NCBI GenBank assembly: GCA_944390735.1
Contig: CALXRL010000044.1
Span: 62,001 to 126,000, forward strand
DNA: 64,000 nucleotides
From: an uncultured Victivallales bacterium
GTDB taxonomy: Bacteria; Verrucomicrobiota; Lentisphaeria; Victivallales; UBA1829
Direction: 5' to 3'
Shown piece by piece: positions 22,897-33,505 of this stretch; within the stretch, counting starts at the first letter, position 1, and each line of letters opens with the position of its first letter. The position numbers and the translations under genes are program-made. The notes under the pieces are model-generated. The model saw nothing but the letters and a program-made list of their open reading frames with translations. It did not search any database and was not told where the DNA came from.

Positions 22897-24102
22897 ATGA
22901 AATTTGTTTTACTAACCTGCATGATCTCGCCTCATCAACTGCCTTTGACGAAATCCCTGTTAAAATATTGGCATGGAAAAGTTCAATATCAATATACGGA
23001 AAATCTATCTCCGGAACGTTCTTCTATGGGATGGAATGAGAGCTCGGCAAAAAACATCATACCGACTCCGTTTGACCCAGAAGATGCTCTCAATGCCGAT
23101 GCATTGCTCTGTGGATTACGAATGCTTGAATTGTACAAGAAACGAGTTCAAACGGGAAAATGGACCGGTTATATGTTTGAACGGTGGTTGAAACCTCCAT
23201 GGGGGATTCTCCGTCTATTCTGGCCTCCTTATTTTCATATGGCAAAAGAAATAATTCGATTGGGGAAAAGTCCATTCTTTCATTTTTTCCCGATTGGGAT
23301 TCATGCAGCCAGGGATCTGGTACGCCTTGAACAGCTGCTGAAAGGAAATCTTAAATCTCTTTTTTTTACGCCAATTTTAGCTTTTGAATCCAAGCCTGGG
23401 GGGAGCGTTATGACACTGCAAAAAGCAATGAAGGCTAAAATTCTTTCCCAAGACGAGATTATATTTGCGAAAAAAAATGGGTTTGTTCAAATTCCCCAAA
23501 AGAATTGGGGGAAAGTTGAGGCTTCCGGTTTTTTTTCTAAATTGTGTCTCTGGGGATATTTTGTCTCTCCGGGACAAAAGGCAGTAAGAGAAAAAATTCC
23601 ACCTCGTCCTGAAAAACTTTTATGGGTAGGAAGAATGGTTTCAGTAAAAAAAATTGATACAATTATCCAAGCAGTAAATTCTTGCAGAAGCCTTTCCTTA
23701 AATCTGTATGGGCATGGACCAATCGAATCTAAACTCAAAGTGTTAGCAGCACAGAAGCAGCATTCCATATTCCATGATTTTGTGCCGATTTCTCAAGTTC
23801 GAAACCTCATGAGAATTCATGATACCTACATTTTTGCCAGCAATGCTTATGAGGGCTGGGGAGCTGTCGTCAGTGAAGCGTTGGAAGAAGGAATGCGTGT
23901 ATTTGCCTCCATGGAATCCGGAGCTGGAAGTACTATACTGCCCAAAGAAAGACTATTCCGATCAGGAGATGTCTCTGCGCTGAAAGCTCTGCTTCAAAAA
24001 TCTGGTTCCGGGGGAGAAATCGGCCCCTGGACAGCAGATGAAGCAGCTAGAACACTTGTATCACGAATCAAAGAACAATCTACGGGAGAACAAAACGCAT
24101 GA
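22897..24102 (+). CDS. GT4-like glycosyltransferase
   Basis: 401 residues. The N-terminal half (FVLLTCMISPHQLPLTKSL, later GIHAARDLVRLEQLLKG) is less typical, but the donor half has KLLWVGRMVSVKKIDTIIQA, LNLYGHGPIESKLKVLAA, IFHDFVPISQVRNLMRIHD and FASNAYEGWGAVVSEALEEG, which fit family 4 with its Glu pair around the G-W-G segment. EGWGxVxxEAL is seen in transferases of O-antigen and slime clusters. It begins 5 nt after the acetyltransferase and its stop overlaps the next start (ATGA), so translation is coupled along the cassette. Confidence 0.85.
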   Translation: MKFVLLTCMISPHQLPLTKSLLKYWHGKVQYQYTENLSPERSSMGWNESSAKNIIPTPFDPEDALNADALLCGLRMLELYKKRVQTGKWTGYMFERWLKPPWGILRLFWPPYFHMAKEIIRLGKSPFFHFFPIGIHAARDLVRLEQLLKGNLKSLFFTPILAFESKPGGSVMTLQKAMKAKILSQDEIIFAKKNGFVQIPQKNWGKVEASGFFSKLCLWGYFVSPGQKAVREKIPPRPEKLLWVGRMVSVKKIDTIIQAVNSCRSLSLNLYGHGPIESKLKVLAAQKQHSIFHDFVPISQVRNLMRIHDTYIFASNAYEGWGAVVSEALEEGMRVFASMESGAGSTILPKERLFRSGDVSALKALLQKSGSGGEIGPWTADEAARTLVSRIKEQSTGEQNA

Positions 24103-25262
24103 GGATTCTCCACACCATTACAGGATTATCTCGGAAAAGCGGAGGTACAAGCAGCTGTACCTATCACCTGGTCCGGGCTTTGAATGAAAAGGGGTGTGCA
24201 ACTGATCTCTTAACATCCGCCGGAACTCTGGAGAATCCTTTGGTGGGATCTGGTGAGTTTATCAAAGAAATTCCAGCTCATTTTCACACACCGTTTGCTT
24301 ATTCCAGAGAAATGCGCCATGCGCTGGATCTTTCTTCCGGATACGATCTCATTCACACGAATGGATTATGGCTGGATCTTAACTACTACTCCTGCATAGT
24401 GGCCAGGCGGCGGGGACTTCCTTATATTATTTCACCACACGGGATGTTGTACCCGCAGGCATTGGCAGTCAAACCATGGCGAAAGCGGATAATGCGACTG
24501 CTTTGCTTTAATCGTCTGCTTCGAGAAGCAGCCTGTATTCACGTAACATGTGAAGAAGAACGACTTCATTATCGTTCTTTGGGATTCAAAAATCCTGTAG
24601 CAGTAATTCCGAATCTTCTCCCGGAAATTCCGGGTCTGAAGGAAATTCCTCAAGAACGGAACAAGAAAAGGATTGGTTTTCTGGGGAGATTCCATCCAAT
24701 CAAAAACTTGCCTTCTCTATTGAAAGCATGGAAACTTCTCGGAGAAAAAACCAGAAATGCAGAACTGCTTCTTATCGGAGGAGGTGCTGAATCCTATGAA
24801 AAAGAATTACATCAAATGGCGGCTCTCTGCCCGAACCGGAATATTCGTTTCTGCGGTTTTGTTGACGGGAAAGAAAAATATCATCTACTAGCTTCTCTGA
24901 CGGCCCTATGCGTTCCGAGCTTGCAGGAAAACTTCGGAATGACTGTTTTGGAATCCTTGGCAATGGAAACTCCCGTAATCGCATCCAAGACGACCCCCTG
25001 GGAAGAACTGGAATCCGAAGATTGCGGCTGGTGGGTGAACAATGATCCCCAAAGTCTTGCAGAGACAATCCTGAATGTGCTGAATCTTTCTGAGGAGGAT
25101 CGAAGCAGAATGGGTAAAAACGGAAAAAAACTGTTATTCCGGAAGTACCACGCCGATGTCGTAACCCGGAAAATGATCGATCTATACCATTGGGTAACTG
25201 CCGGAGAATCTCTCCCGGAATTTGTAGAAATCGAAAAATGTAAGGTTGTTCCAAAAAGCTAA
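24099..25262 (+). CDS. GT4 family glycosyltransferase
   Basis: 387 residues with all the usual family 4 blocks: RILHTITGLSRKSGGTSSCT at the start, DLIHTNGLWLDLNYYSC, YIISPHGMLYPQALAVKPWR (the SPHGM motif of WcaC/Gumh-like mannosyl-type enzymes), IGFLGRFHPIKNLPSLLKAW, LLIGGGAESYEKEL, RFCGFVDGKEKYHLLASL and VPSLQENFGMTVLESLAMET. The last block holds the donor-binding Glu pair. It is followed by a 203-nt very A+T-rich gap with no recognisable gene, where a small internal promoter or an old insertion boundary might lie. Confidence 0.9.
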   Translation: MRILHTITGLSRKSGGTSSCTYHLVRALNEKGCATDLLTSAGTLENPLVGSGEFIKEIPAHFHTPFAYSREMRHALDLSSGYDLIHTNGLWLDLNYYSCIVARRRGLPYIISPHGMLYPQALAVKPWRKRIMRLLCFNRLLREAACIHVTCEEERLHYRSLGFKNPVAVIPNLLPEIPGLKEIPQERNKKRIGFLGRFHPIKNLPSLLKAWKLLGEKTRNAELLLIGGGAESYEKELHQMAALCPNRNIRFCGFVDGKEKYHLLASLTALCVPSLQENFGMTVLESLAMETPVIASKTTPWEELESEDCGWWVNNDPQSLAETILNVLNLSEEDRSRMGKNGKKLLFRKYHADVVTRKMIDLYHWVTAGESLPEFVEIEKCKVVPKS

Positions 25263-25465
25263 CTTGATGTAAAATGGTTTTAATTAAATCAAAAAGACAT
25301 AATCATTGAATATGGCAAGATAATACTCGTAGTTCCCTTCAAGAAAAACATTTATAATATTAATATATTATGACAGAAAAACAAATTAAATAAGGGAAAA
25401 AATATCGAATCCTTAAAGCAGGAATGCTTCTAAATAATATTAATATTAAATTTAAAGGAGAGCTT

Positions 25466-26017
25466 ATGCAATATATAGATTTATCTAAATATAAAGATGT
25501 TATTTCATATAAAATAAAATTAGTTAGATTAATTTGGTTTTATATATGGATATTATTTATCTATCCCTTGCCTAGGAGCTTTGGGAGTGGTTGGAAACGA
25601 TTCTTACTCCGACTATTTGGTGCAAGAATTTCAAAAACGGCTGTGATCTATTCTTCAACAAAAATTTATATGCCATGGAACTTAGAGATGGGAGATTACT
25701 CCTGTTTAGCTGATGGAGTAGAGTGTTACAATGTAACCTTAATTAGAATAGGGAATAATTCAACAATATCTCAGAGAACTTTTCTCTGCAGTGCATCTCA
25801 TGATATTACAAAGTCAGATATGCCTTTGATTGTCAAACCTATCACGATAGAGGACGGAGTCTGGGTTGCTGCAGAAGCATTTATCGCTCCAGGAGTGACG
25901 GTTCATAAGGGGGCCGTTGTCGGAGCAAGAGCTTGTGTATTCAAAGATGTCGAACCTTGGACAGTTGTCGGTGGGAATCCCGCCAGATTCCTCAAAAGGA
26001 GAGAGTTGAAACCATGA
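25466..26017 (+). CDS. Hexapeptide acetyltransferase, WcaF-like
   Basis: 183 residues from the ATG at 25466, which AAAGGAG precedes by 5 nt; an in-frame ATG at 25424 lacks such a site. The start YIDLSKYKD and the phrase YPLPRSFGSGWKRFLLRLFG resemble the colanic-acid acetyltransferase WcaF. The beta-helix runs through MEMGDY-type repeats, LIRIGNNSTISQRTFLCSAS followed by the catalytic-type HD, then ITIEDGVWVAAEAFIAPGVT and VVGARACVFKDVEPWTVVGG. It should acetylate a sugar hydroxyl of the repeat unit. Its first 40 codons are even richer in A and T than the rest of the cassette. ATGA overlap with the next gene. Confidence 0.85.
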   Translation: MQYIDLSKYKDVISYKIKLVRLIWFYIWILFIYPLPRSFGSGWKRFLLRLFGARISKTAVIYSSTKIYMPWNLEMGDYSCLADGVECYNVTLIRIGNNSTISQRTFLCSASHDITKSDMPLIVKPITIEDGVWVAAEAFIAPGVTVHKGAVVGARACVFKDVEPWTVVGGNPARFLKRRELKP

Positions 26018-26850
26018 TATCCGCAACCATTTTGACTCTTAACGAAGAGCGCAATATTGTTGACTGTATTCAAACCTTGCGTTCCTGGTGCAATGATATT
26101 GTCGTCTATGACTCATTCAGTACGGATCGAACGGTTGAACTTGCTAAACAGGAAGGCGCTCGGGTTTTTCAGAGAAAATTTGATAATTATGCTGCTCAAC
26201 GGAATGCCGCATTGAGAGAAGTTTCTTATCCCGGAGAATGGGTTTTAATGGTGGATGCCGATGAGAGATGGGACGGAAAAATAGGAAAATTTCTGAAGGA
26301 GGCAATCTCCGACCCGCAATATCAATCTACTGATATTTTCCACTTCCAGCGAAAAGACATCTTTCTGGGACGCTGGCTGAAACACAACATTGGCTCGAAC
26401 ACATGGTCCGGCAGATTGCTGCGTCGTAAAAATGTCTCTATTGCGCGAGATATCAATGAAGAATATCACTGTTCCGGTAAAAAAAGTTATCTTTCCGGCT
26501 GCCGTTTTATTCATTATCCCTTCAGCAACGGGATCAGCTGGTGGTTTGCGCGCCACAATCGTTACTCCGATATGGAAGCAATTCGCTTGATGGCGGAACG
26601 CTCTGAAAAAGTTCCCTGGAAAGGTCTTGTTGGCAAAGATCCTATTCTGCGACGCAAGGCTCTCAAACAATTCTTTTACCGAATGCCAGGAAGACCATTC
26701 ATCATGTTCTGCATTCTTTATTTTCTGAAGCTGGGTTTTCTTGATGGTCGAGCAGGATTTCATTATTCTTTACTGCGGGCAATCTATGAATATATGATTG
26801 AATTGAAAATTATGGAAGCAAAAAGACTCATGAAACACTTGAAGGTTTAA
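26014..26850 (+). CDS. GT2 family glycosyltransferase (WaaE/KdtX-like)
   Basis: 278 residues. The N-terminus ISATILTLNEERNIVDCIQT is the GT2 nucleotide-binding strand; DIVVYDSFSTDRTVELAKQE carries the first Asp cluster, and VLMVDADERWD is the metal-binding D-x-D type motif followed by E-R. The pattern 'NEE.ni..cl.s...w.deivvvDs.StD.T' and the later FARHNRYSDMEA match glycosyltransferases of the WaaE/KdtX type known from LPS core and exopolysaccharide loci. A C-terminal hydrophobic stretch (MFCILYFLKLGFLDGRAGFH) probably touches the membrane. It is the only GT-A fold transferase of the cassette. Confidence 0.85.
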   Translation: MISATILTLNEERNIVDCIQTLRSWCNDIVVYDSFSTDRTVELAKQEGARVFQRKFDNYAAQRNAALREVSYPGEWVLMVDADERWDGKIGKFLKEAISDPQYQSTDIFHFQRKDIFLGRWLKHNIGSNTWSGRLLRRKNVSIARDINEEYHCSGKKSYLSGCRFIHYPFSNGISWWFARHNRYSDMEAIRLMAERSEKVPWKGLVGKDPILRRKALKQFFYRMPGRPFIMFCILYFLKLGFLDGRAGFHYSLLRAIYEYMIELKIMEAKRLMKHLKV

Positions 26851-26863
26851 TTGCAGGAATCCT

Positions 26864-28060
26864 ATGAAATCCATTTTGCTGATTTATCATTTTTTCTACC
26901 CGGATCCCGTTGTTAGTGCAAGACTGTTTTCCGATCTAGCGGAATTTCTTGTGGAAAATGGTTTTAAGGTTACGGTTTTCACGGGGGATCATCTCATCCG
27001 TTCAACAAAAATACTGGCATCGAATGAGGTTTGGAATGGAATAAAAATACAACGCTTTCATCGTCCGAACTTCTCACAGGGGAGCAACTTTGGCCGATTG
27101 TTCAATTCTGCTGTTTTGCAATTGAAATGGCTTGCGGCTATCCGAAAACATCGATTTGATTTTGATGCAATCATTCTCGGAACAGATCCCCAGTTTGCCT
27201 ACATGATGTTTCCAATACTCCGCTTCCTGAACAGGAAAATCAGACTGATTCATTGGGTTTTTGATCTGTACCCAGAAGCAATTCTTGTCAATTCTCCGAA
27301 ATGGATGAAAACTCTTGCATGGTTCACAAAACCGTTTGCAAAAATTGCTTATAAGCAGGTAGACGACATGATTGATATCGGAACGCATATGAGAAAACGT
27401 TTATGTTCCTATCATCATGCTGGCAGGATTCAAACCATGACGCCATGGGCAATCATGGAACCGGACACAGTTCCTGAATCCGATCCGGAAATTCGAAAGG
27501 AGCTCTTTGGGAATGCAAAGTTGGGACTTCTTTACTCAGGAACCGTTGGACATGCACATAACTTAGCACCCTTTATCGAACTGGCAAGAGAATGCAGACG
27601 AAGTCAGATCAATGCAGCCTTCTGTTTTGCAGGCTACGGCAACTGCTTTAATGCTCAAATTTCCTGTTTAACACCAGAAGATACGAATATCCGAATTGCC
27701 GCTTTCACAGATGAAAAGGAATTGCAAAAACGCCTTTCTGCCGCCGATATTCATTTGATATCTCTCCGACCAGAATGGGAGGGAATTGTTGTACCTTCCA
27801 AATTCTTCGGAGCACTTGCCATTGGACGCCCCATCTTATTTTCAGGTCCTGAAAAAAGTGAAATAGCCGAGTGGTGCACTTCCCTGAAACTAGGCTGGAT
27901 TCTCTCTGAAAAAACTGTTCAAGAAATAAAATTGCAACTTCTCCATCCGGATCAGATCAAGGATATGCGGCAACATGTTTTTCAGTGTTATCACAGCCAA
28001 TTCTCCAAACGCTGTGTCTTACAGCATTGGAAAGATCTGCTCTGCGAAACTCCAAGATGA
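26864..28060 (+). CDS. GT4 family glycosyltransferase, WbuB-like
   Basis: 398 residues. The opening LIYHFFYPDPVVSARLFSDL is the characteristic start of WbuB-like transferases, whose 'PP' loop binds the acceptor. LIHWVFDLYPEAIL follows, then MIDIGTHMRKRL, LLYSGTVGHAHNLAPFIELA, FCFAGYGNCFNAQI and SLRPEWEGIVVPSKFFGALA, the donor-binding block in this group (usually 'vPSK.y..la.GrP'). It is the last gene of the cassette: a strong terminator lies 165 nt downstream. Donor unknown; related enzymes transfer fucosamine or glucose. Confidence 0.9.
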   Translation: MKSILLIYHFFYPDPVVSARLFSDLAEFLVENGFKVTVFTGDHLIRSTKILASNEVWNGIKIQRFHRPNFSQGSNFGRLFNSAVLQLKWLAAIRKHRFDFDAIILGTDPQFAYMMFPILRFLNRKIRLIHWVFDLYPEAILVNSPKWMKTLAWFTKPFAKIAYKQVDDMIDIGTHMRKRLCSYHHAGRIQTMTPWAIMEPDTVPESDPEIRKELFGNAKLGLLYSGTVGHAHNLAPFIELARECRRSQINAAFCFAGYGNCFNAQISCLTPEDTNIRIAAFTDEKELQKRLSAADIHLISLRPEWEGIVVPSKFFGALAIGRPILFSGPEKSEIAEWCTSLKLGWILSEKTVQEIKLQLLHPDQIKDMRQHVFQCYHSQFSKRCVLQHWKDLLCETPR

Positions 28061-29329: not shown

Positions 29330-31492
29330 ATGGATACCGACAACTGGAAACTGCCTCCGATCGAAAAGATCCCGGAGGCCTACAGCGCCATCGCGGACAA
29401 CCGCGTCTCCTTGGACGCAAACTCCGCAAAAGTGCGCTCCTCGGACAACTCAAAAACCTATACCGTCCGCTGGCAGGATGACGCCTACACCTCCGATGAC
29501 AACGGCTCAAAATGGCAGAACTATTCCGGTTATCCGATCCTCGCCGTTCTCCTCCTTCAGGGAAAACTTCCCCTCAACCGCCGGATCGCCGATCTTTTCC
29601 GCGCAATCCCCTGGAAGGAACTCAACAAGGCGCATAAAAACAAATACCCGGAAGCTCTCGCCGAAATCCTGGCTGGAATGTCCGAATCCGAACGGAACAG
29701 CATCGAACAGGATATGCGCATCGTCTATGACGCTCTTGCCAAACTCCAACTGAAACGTCTCCGTCATACTGCCGCTTCCAAAAAAACAGTTCCGGAAGTG
29801 AAACTTTCCCCGTTTCCCGCACCCGCCGTCCTGGAGACAAAAACAAGGGAGCAGCTCGCCGAACTCCTGACGCTCTGCCGGAAAACGGATCCGGTCGTTT
29901 TCATCGCCGATTCCACTCTCGAAAATCTCTGGATCAGAACCGGTCAGGGCATCCATCTTGCGGCCGAAGCGACATTCGGAAAAGAGCACTTTCAACACTT
30001 CCTCTCCGCATTTTTCAGTGAGGATCTCCGCAAGGTCTCGCACGATGTGAAACCCGTCATGCGCCGTCTGCTCGACCGCGGGCTCCCCGCCGAAGGCTTT
30101 GTCTTCGACACCGCTCTCGCAGCCTATCTTCTGAACGCGCTGGAAGGCAACCGCCCCCTGGGGAAAATCGTTCCCGAATATCTCTCTCTGGAAGCTCCGG
30201 CCGGAGAGGCCGCCTCCACGGAAGCCATCGCCCTTCTTCAGCCGAAACTCACCGCCGAACTGAAACGCTGCGGGATGCAATCTCTTTACTCGGAAATCGA
30301 ATTTCCCCTCTGCCGCGTCCTCGCGGAAATGGAACATACCGGAGTCAGAGTCGATCCGGAAATGCTCAAATCGTTCGGGAAACTGCTCGCGCAAAAGATG
30401 GAAACCGTTCAGAAACAGGCATTCGAACATGCGGGCGAGGTCTTCAATCTCAATTCGCCGAAACAGCTCGGAGAACTCCTGTTCGAAAAACTGAAACTTC
30501 CCTCCGGGAAAAAGACGAAAAACGGCTATTCCACGGACATTGAAGTTCTGGAGTCTCTGAAAAACCGCCATCCGGTCGTTGCCGATGTCATGGAGTTCCG
30601 CCAGCTTTCCAAACTGAAATCCACCTACGCCGACGGACTCCTCGCGGAAATCGCCGGGGATGGACGAATCCATACCACCTTCCAGATGATGACCACCGCC
30701 ACCGGACGTCTGAGCTCAACGGAACCGAATCTCCAGAACATCCCCGTGCGCAGCGAACTGGGCTCCGAACTGCGGAAAATGTTCGTCGCCGCGCCCGGCC
30801 ATCTGCTGATCGACGCCGACTACTCCCAGATCGAACTTCGCATTCTCGCCTGCATCTCCGGCGACAACGCCATGCAGGAGGCCTTCCGTTCCGGCGAAGA
30901 CATCCATACCGCGACGGCATCTCAGGTGTTTCATGTTCCTCCCGATCAGGTCACGCCCGATATGCGGAGAAAAGCCAAAGCGGTCAACTTCGGCATTGTC
31001 TACGGTATCTCCCGGTTTGCGCTGGCGGAGGACATCGGCGTTTCCCGCAAGGAGGCGGATGAATACATGAACCGATATTTTCAGCGCTATTCCGGAGTCC
31101 GGCACTATATGGATTCAATCGTCGAACAGGCAAAACACAATGGATTCGTCTCCACCTTTCTGGGGCGCCGACGCTATCTTCCCGAACTCAAATCCCCCGT
31201 TTACGCCATCCGCTCCTTCGGAGAACGGGTTGCGCTGAACGCTCCGATTCAGGGAGCCTCGGCCGATCTCATCAAACTGGCCATGATCCATGTCTTCCAG
31301 CGCCTGAAACGCGAAAAACTCCGCTCCAGACTGATCCTCCAGATTCATGACGAACTCCTGATCGAATCCCCTCTGGAGGAGGCGGCCGTCGTTGAACGGC
31401 TTCTGAAGGAAGAGATGGAACACGTACAACCCCTCGCCGTCCCGCTTACCGCGGACGTCGGCGCAGGCCCCGACTGGGCCTCGGCAAAATGA
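29330..31492 (+). CDS. polA: DNA polymerase I, atypical: no 5' nuclease, degenerate proofreading, unfamiliar N-terminal domain
   Basis: 720 residues against about 930 in E. coli. The polymerase domain is intact: motif A DADYSQIELR (near 495), motif B RRKAKAVNFGIVYG (near 545) and motif C QIHDELLIE (near 671). The 3'-5' exonuclease fold is still there but its catalytic residues are not: the usual D-x-E of Exo I reads FIADSTLENLW (near 190), and the Exo III Y-x3-D is absent. In place of the 5' flap nuclease there is a domain of about 150 residues (IPEAYSAIADNRV, KTYTVRWQDDAY, YSGYPILAVLLLQGKLPLN) without the nuclease Asp clusters. It would still fill gaps but should need a separate nuclease for primer removal. 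It is followed by ligA after 18 nt. Confidence 0.9.
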   Translation: MDTDNWKLPPIEKIPEAYSAIADNRVSLDANSAKVRSSDNSKTYTVRWQDDAYTSDDNGSKWQNYSGYPILAVLLLQGKLPLNRRIADLFRAIPWKELNKAHKNKYPEALAEILAGMSESERNSIEQDMRIVYDALAKLQLKRLRHTAASKKTVPEVKLSPFPAPAVLETKTREQLAELLTLCRKTDPVVFIADSTLENLWIRTGQGIHLAAEATFGKEHFQHFLSAFFSEDLRKVSHDVKPVMRRLLDRGLPAEGFVFDTALAAYLLNALEGNRPLGKIVPEYLSLEAPAGEAASTEAIALLQPKLTAELKRCGMQSLYSEIEFPLCRVLAEMEHTGVRVDPEMLKSFGKLLAQKMETVQKQAFEHAGEVFNLNSPKQLGELLFEKLKLPSGKKTKNGYSTDIEVLESLKNRHPVVADVMEFRQLSKLKSTYADGLLAEIAGDGRIHTTFQMMTTATGRLSSTEPNLQNIPVRSELGSELRKMFVAAPGHLLIDADYSQIELRILACISGDNAMQEAFRSGEDIHTATASQVFHVPPDQVTPDMRRKAKAVNFGIVYGISRFALAEDIGVSRKEADEYMNRYFQRYSGVRHYMDSIVEQAKHNGFVSTFLGRRRYLPELKSPVYAIRSFGERVALNAPIQGASADLIKLAMIHVFQRLKREKLRSRLILQIHDELLIESPLEEAAVVERLLKEEMEHVQPLAVPLTADVGAGPDWASAK

Positions 31493-33505
<2,013 letters not shown>

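What the first reader, a model, noticed from the sequence alone, without database searches (positions are those of the whole stretch)
29330..31492. DNA polymerase I with its 5' nuclease replaced by an unfamiliar domain and with dead proofreading
Polymerase motifs A, B and C are intact, but Exo I (D-x-E) and Exo III (Y-x3-D) residues are missing. The first 150 residues show no flap-nuclease Asp motifs and instead carry a compact domain with IPEAYSAIADNRV, KTYTVRWQDDAY and GYPILAVLLLQGKLPLN. Known: some bacteria have PolA without proofreading and a few lack the 5' nuclease, but a new N-terminal domain at this place is unusual. It is unknown what removes Okazaki primers.
Basis: partly seen in the sequence, partly recalled or inferred. 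Interest (0 to 1): 0.6.

Follow-up and report, generated by a model that had tools for sequence, protein, structure and literature searches.

The report
DNA polymerase I with swapped N-terminal domain
In one genus of gut bacteria, whose relatives have mostly lost DNA polymerase I, a borrowed copy carries a small non-nuclease domain where its primer-removing nuclease should be, while that nuclease is supplied by a separate gene elsewhere in the genome.

Summary
The 720-aa ORF at 29330-31492 is the genome's only family-A polymerase. Its polymerase motifs are intact, its proofreading site is dead, and residues 1-145 are not a 5' nuclease. The puzzle of primer removal is solved: a free-standing 5'-3' exonuclease lies on another contig, and two RNase HII-family genes are present. 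Almost every genome of the order (Victivallales) has this free nuclease, usually ending in a beta-clamp-like peptide (here QMDLF), and nearly all lack a cellular PolA. Loss of Pol I with a solo nuclease in Verrucomicrobia is already published. In a tree, the window's PolA groups with gut Clostridia, not with native PolAs of its class, and it shares their dead exonuclease. It was probably regained by horizontal transfer. The N-terminal domain ("X") otherwise occurs as ~145-aa single-domain proteins in gut Bacteroidales, Bacilli and a deltaproteobacterium. It is fused to PolA only in this genus (4 genomes) and is under purifying selection. X matches no Pfam, NCBIfam or PDB entry. Profile and fold comparisons suggest, without proving, a SWIM domain that lost its zinc ligands. 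X most likely is a non-catalytic docking or DNA-binding module. Verdict: a new domain architecture of a known enzyme.

The parts
29330..31492 (+). polA variant: X domain + vestigial 3'-5' exonuclease domain + family A polymerase domain, 720 aa
29319..29323 (+). probable ribosome-binding site GGGAG
   Evidence: sequence
29330..29764 (+). X domain, residues 1-145, in place of the 5' nuclease; otherwise found as a single-domain protein
   Evidence: purifying selection
29414..29569 (+). possible zinc-less SWIM core, residues 29-80; Y53, S55, G67, P69 stand where SWIM domains have C, C, C, H
   Evidence: suggestive, not proven
29780..30310 (+). linker and vestigial 3'-5' exonuclease domain without the DEDDy residues
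   Evidence: PF22619 weak match to residues 204-283; alignment
30320..31489 (+). polymerase (Klenow) domain, residues 331-720
30812..30841 (+). motif A DADYSQIELR (D497, E502)
30965..31003 (+). motif B (R546, K550, F554, Y558)
31346..31354 (+). motif C HDE (673-675)
31511..33505 (+). ligA, NAD-dependent DNA ligase, 18 bp downstream; the polA-ligA pair is also seen in G001 and G002 of the genus

Best explanation
The order to which this genome belongs keeps the 5'-3' exonuclease as a separate gene and mostly lacks the polymerase part of Pol I. This genus regained a PolA from a gut Clostridia-like donor by horizontal transfer, already without proofreading. Its 5' nuclease, redundant next to the resident free nuclease, was then replaced by domain X, a small protein also shared among gut bacteria. 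In the cell (inferred), the free nuclease, probably tethered to the beta clamp by its C-terminal QMDLF, removes primers, helped by RNase HII. The X-PolA fills the gap and LigA, encoded next to it, seals. X is probably a non-catalytic nucleic-acid or protein-binding module, perhaps a SWIM domain without zinc, that positions the polymerase. Shown by sequence: architecture, free nuclease, distribution, tree, selection. Inferred: direction of transfer, order of replacement, clamp binding, the role of X.
For: One PF00476 match and one free PF02739 match in the genome. Of 61 genomes of the order, 57 have PF02739 matches, nearly all in separate frames of 300-400 aa, but only the four of this genus have a PolA at E below 1e-140. 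G134 has both a full-length fused PolA and a free nuclease, so a PolA beside the free nuclease is seen directly. The Klenow tree puts genus g1, g37 and g44 inside the Clostridia cluster (97/96) and the class's native PolAs elsewhere. Native PolAs keep DEDDy; the window's and the Clostridial ones do not. Free nucleases of the order form one clade (100/100) apart from Firmicute PolA nucleases. Conserved C-terminal clamp-like motif in 28 of 30. X as a single-domain protein elsewhere. B. subtilis precedent: a discrete FEN removes primers and the Klenow part alone rescues a polA deletion (PMC10191290).
Against: Genomes are draft MAGs, so absence is statistical. The donor sample is small and several 'Clostridia' rows are unverified faecal contigs filed as phage. 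Within the Clostridia cluster some forks are weak (81/54, 90/94). No function of X is shown; gene neighbourhoods of free X are not conserved. The full-length structure prediction failed (pLDDT 53), so placement of X on the polymerase is unknown. Clamp binding rests on a motif only.
Confidence: 0.65

Rival explanations
1. Vertical fission: the native PolA of the order split into a free nuclease and a free polymerase; this genus kept the polymerase and capped it with X, other lineages lost it. No horizontal transfer.
For: The free nucleases form one clade, nearer to proteobacterial PolA nucleases and those of class members f13 than to Firmicute ones.
Against: The polymerase groups with Clostridia, not with native class PolAs; it lacks the proofreading residues the natives keep; g37 has a fused Firmicute-type PolA besides the free nuclease. 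Fission may still explain the nuclease half.
Confidence: 0.12
2. X is an unrecognised nuclease that replaced the 5' nuclease function.
For: It sits exactly where the nuclease was.
Against: Across 20 members the only invariant acidic residues are E16 and D57, with D23 in 19: no cluster for a two-metal site. No nuclease match by sequence or fold. A complete nuclease is encoded elsewhere.
Confidence: 0.05
3. X is a neutral passenger: an in-frame fusion or start-codon capture without function in the polymerase.
For: The fusion is restricted to one genus, and free X has no conserved neighbourhood.
Against: Purifying selection on X (dN/dS 0.09-0.28), comparable to the exonuclease part and not much weaker than the polymerase; kept across species with 58-81% identity.
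Confidence: 0.12
4. Assembly or binning artefact joining an X gene to a truncated polA.
For: All genomes are draft assemblies, those named being MAGs.
Against: Four separately assembled genomes show the same in-frame fusion with diverged codons, and ligA downstream where looked at.
Confidence: 0.01

Closest known systems
DNA polymerase I (PolA1; Firmicutes/Clostridia type, Bst/Bsu Pol I)
   Same: Polymerase domain with motifs A, B, C; degenerate 3'-5' exonuclease domain; tree position.
   Different: No N-terminal 5' nuclease; X domain in its place.
PolA2 / APEX of Actinobacteria (PMC12926913)
   Same: Family A polymerase without 5' nuclease and with dead exonuclease.
   Different: PolA2 is confined to Actinobacteria and carries a clamp motif QxxLF in the exonuclease remnant; the window protein has no such motif and has an X domain.
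Stand-alone bacterial FEN (B. subtilis YpcP/FenA), and Pol I loss in Tenericutes and Verrucomicrobia (PMC10191290, PMC12926913)
   Same: Free nuclease supplying the 5' nuclease function where PolA lacks it or is absent.
   Different: Here a polymerase is present without its own nuclease; the order's nucleases carry a conserved C-terminal clamp-like motif, which I did not find described.
SWIM zinc-finger domain (PF04434)
   Same: Strand pattern, S-x-K-x-Y-x-V strand, hairpin and following A-V helix align with a masked SWIM profile over 50 columns; SWIM-type entries among weak BFVD fold hits.
   Different: All four zinc ligands absent; no significant Pfam score; extra C-terminal helices.

Membership tests
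DNA polymerase I (PolA1) | Family A polymerase domain with motifs A, B, C | tested here: met
DNA polymerase I (PolA1) | TIGR00593 (pola) above its cut-off | tested here: met
   641 bits against 600, matching from residue 119 on; the longer PRK05755 model stays below its cut-off (663 of 720)
DNA polymerase I (PolA1) | N-terminal FEN-like 5'-3' exonuclease, which distinguishes PolA1 from other groups | tested here: not met
   PMC12926913
DNA polymerase I (PolA1) | Groups with Pol I orthologs in a tree | tested here: met
Active 3'-5' proofreading exonuclease | DEDDy residues | tested here: not met
FEN / 5'-3' exonuclease (X domain) | PF02739/PF01367 and metal-binding Asp/Glu | tested here: not met
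FEN / 5'-3' exonuclease (gene on contig C61) | PF02739 and PF01367 | tested here: met
   E 1.3e-46 and 2e-24
SWIM domain (X) | CxCxnCxH zinc ligands | tested here: not met
   none of the 20 members has them
SWIM domain (X) | Remote sequence or fold similarity | tested here: inconclusive
   masked profile score 20.96 above 300 shuffles, but one region of reversed PolA columns reaches 21.06; X members rank 2-4 among 1122 non-SWIM ORFs at E about 1; Foldseek hits not significant
PolA2 / APEX | Actinobacterial clade and clamp motif in the exonuclease remnant | tested here: not met
   no QxxLF-like motif in the protein; Firmicute tree position, though no PolA2 reference was in the tree
Beta-clamp binding of the free nuclease | Physical clamp interaction | not testable with these tools
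   motif only

The most novel reading that the evidence does not exclude
X is a new accessory module of DNA polymerase I, derived from a SWIM domain that lost its zinc. It replaces the tethering role of the 5' nuclease by binding DNA or a replisome partner, and its single-domain relatives in other gut bacteria act on DNA polymerase or repair in trans. In this lineage Okazaki maturation would resemble the eukaryotic arrangement: a clamp-tethered FEN, a separate gap-filling polymerase and a ligase.
Probability: 0.22. Interest if true: 0.65.

Novelty: new variant of a known kind. Interest (0 to 1): 0.47.

Why it matters
Pol I is one of the most conserved bacterial enzymes, and its nuclease domain defines its main group. 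A lineage that lost Pol I, regained only the polymerase and replaced the nuclease with a foreign domain is a natural test of what the N-terminal part does beyond cutting. The order-wide free nuclease with a clamp-like tail suggests a eukaryote-like division of labour in Okazaki maturation that can be tested directly.

Tried and rejected
X against Pfam, NCBIfam, PDB sequences, phage and plasmid records: nothing significant. FliG_C (E 0.02-0.03) rejected as chance. X in viral contigs: none. Gene neighbourhood of free X as a clue: not conserved. SWIM homology by plain profile comparison: not significant; only with zinc-ligand columns masked, and a control with real families gave one region of equal score, so it stays a hypothesis. 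Full-length fold: too poor to use. Weak PF00476 hits elsewhere in the order as lost PolAs: those read look phage-type, with other architectures and mostly their own exonuclease motifs. A clamp motif within the window PolA: none.

Full report
1. Observation. The ORF at 29330-31492 (+) codes for 720 aa. The polymerase domain matches PF00476 with E 2.6e-159. Aligned with E. coli Pol I, motifs A (D497, E502), B (R546, K550, F554, Y558) and C (H673, D674, E675) are complete, and the DEDDy residues of the 3'-5' exonuclease are gone. The first 145 residues are not a 5' nuclease, and nothing in Pfam, NCBIfam or PDB sequences matches them significantly. No other PF00476 match exists in the held genome (4.29 Mb, 92% complete).

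2. Primer removal. The genome has a free-standing 5'-3' exonuclease: contig C61, 327 aa, directly after a phosphoglycerate mutase-like gene, with PF02739 and PF01367 over cut-off. Its acidic motifs (VDS, FD, EADD, GDKD, GDASDN) can be read in the sequence. Two RNase HII-family genes are present. The B. subtilis precedent shows that a discrete FEN can be the main primer-removal nuclease and that the Klenow part alone rescues a polA deletion (PMC10191290).

3. Distribution. A genus member is titled 'uncultured Victivallales bacterium' (L049). Among 61 genomes of the order, 57 have a PF02739 match, nearly all in separate frames of 300-400 aa. Only the four genomes of this genus have a PF00476 match better than 1e-140. 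Over 198 genomes of the class, further true PolAs are in g37 (fused, 860 aa), g44 (523-586 aa, no nuclease) and in other orders (full length, 920-1090 aa). Five of the weaker PF00476 proteins were read and look phage-type. Loss of Pol I with a standalone nuclease in 'a significant fraction' of Verrucomicrobia is already published (PMC12926913), so this background is known.

4. Origin of the polymerase. In a tree of 36 polymerase domains, g1, g37 and g44 lie in a cluster with Subdoligranulum, Acetoanaerobium and gut contigs of Clostridia type (97/96), while native PolAs of the class lie elsewhere. Klenow identity to the window is 54-61% for these against 43-48% for the class. The class natives keep the proofreading residues; the Clostridia-type enzymes and the window's do not. 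G134 (g37) carries a full-length Firmicute-type PolA and, separately, a free nuclease. The simplest reading is loss of the polymerase in the order and regain by transfer. Some forks inside the cluster are weak, so whether there was one transfer or several is open; polA sits in different gene neighbourhoods in g1, g37 and g44.

5. Domain X. X occurs as a single-domain protein of about 145 aa in Bacteroidales, Bacilli (Erysipelotrichales and relatives) and the deltaproteobacterium Smac51, 40-57% identical to the window. It is in 7 of 395 sampled Bacilli genomes. In the class it is found only in genus g1, always fused to PolA. Over residues 6-145 dN/dS is 0.09-0.28. The predicted fold is confident (pLDDT 91): helix, four-strand sheet, helix, then a helical tail. 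It has no PDB neighbour (best E 0.86). BFVD gives only sub-significant hits, among them three SWIM-type proteins.

6. Is X a SWIM domain? By eye, the segment S-S-x-x-x-K-x-Y-x-V, the hairpin and the GYPxxAV helix start follow the SWIM pattern, with Y53, S55, G67, P69 at the places of C, C, C, H. With zinc columns masked, a profile of 14 SWIM sequences scores 20.96 over 50 columns in exactly this register, above all 300 column shuffles (maximum 16.98); the reversed profile scores 10. Against this, one region of reversed PolA columns scores 21.06 (over 22 columns), so the score alone is not proof. In a ranking of 1902 ORFs with a masked SWIM HMM, X members are at ranks 2, 3 and 4 of the non-SWIM sequences, but at E about 1. 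I hold a zinc-less SWIM origin at about 0.6-0.7. As the defining zinc ligands are absent, X is not filed as a member.

7. A clamp-like tail. 28 of 30 free nucleases of the order end in a motif such as QMDLF, QGELF, TPDLF, QPDLF or QLEFDF; the strict pattern is in 20 of 30 tails against 0.2% of internal windows. The patterns were written after seeing the tails, so the contrast is descriptive. The motif resembles bacterial beta-clamp ligands (general knowledge; QxxLF also in PMC12926913). I found no earlier description, but searched only an open-access library.

8. Mechanism. The best-supported model is a split Okazaki maturation machine: the clamp-tethered free nuclease (with RNase HII) removes primers, X-PolA fills, LigA seals. 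polA and ligA lie 18 bp apart here and are adjacent in G001 and G002. X has no candidate two-metal site and is most likely a binding module. What it binds is unknown.

9. Verdict. The architecture is real and, as far as I could search, undescribed. The enzyme kind, loss of proofreading, and the complementing free nuclease are known. New variant of a known kind.

Noticed in passing
L002:1486-2469 (G000 contig C61) and 29 relatives: Free-standing 5' nucleases of the order end in a conserved beta-clamp-like peptide (QMDLF, QGELF, TPDLF, QLEFDF), 28 of 30.
   Followed up: partly
G150, G149, G147, G146, G148 (L089, L090, L099-L101): Genus g44 has shortened Clostridia-type PolAs (523-586 aa, start sites not settled) that lack the nuclease and much of the exonuclease domain, near rlmN- and RicT-like genes and in most cases a Nif3-like gene.
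   Followed up: partly
G057 contig C39 (L115): A second free nuclease, 73% identical to that of this genus and nested with it in the tree, without the clamp-like tail: a likely transfer between families.
   Followed up: no
L155 (G000 contig C37:6330-6425): Own genome codes for a small zinc-bearing SWIM protein (CSCPDAAQRAKENTRGYCKHI) with close relatives across the order.
   Followed up: no
L013 (G028): Phage-type family A polymerase (793 aa) with an N-terminal region resembling uracil-DNA glycosylase, in a genome where no free 5' nuclease was found (89% complete).
   Followed up: no
window 24099-28060: Cluster of glycosyltransferase- and acetyltransferase-like genes (polysaccharide synthesis) upstream of polA.
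   Followed up: no
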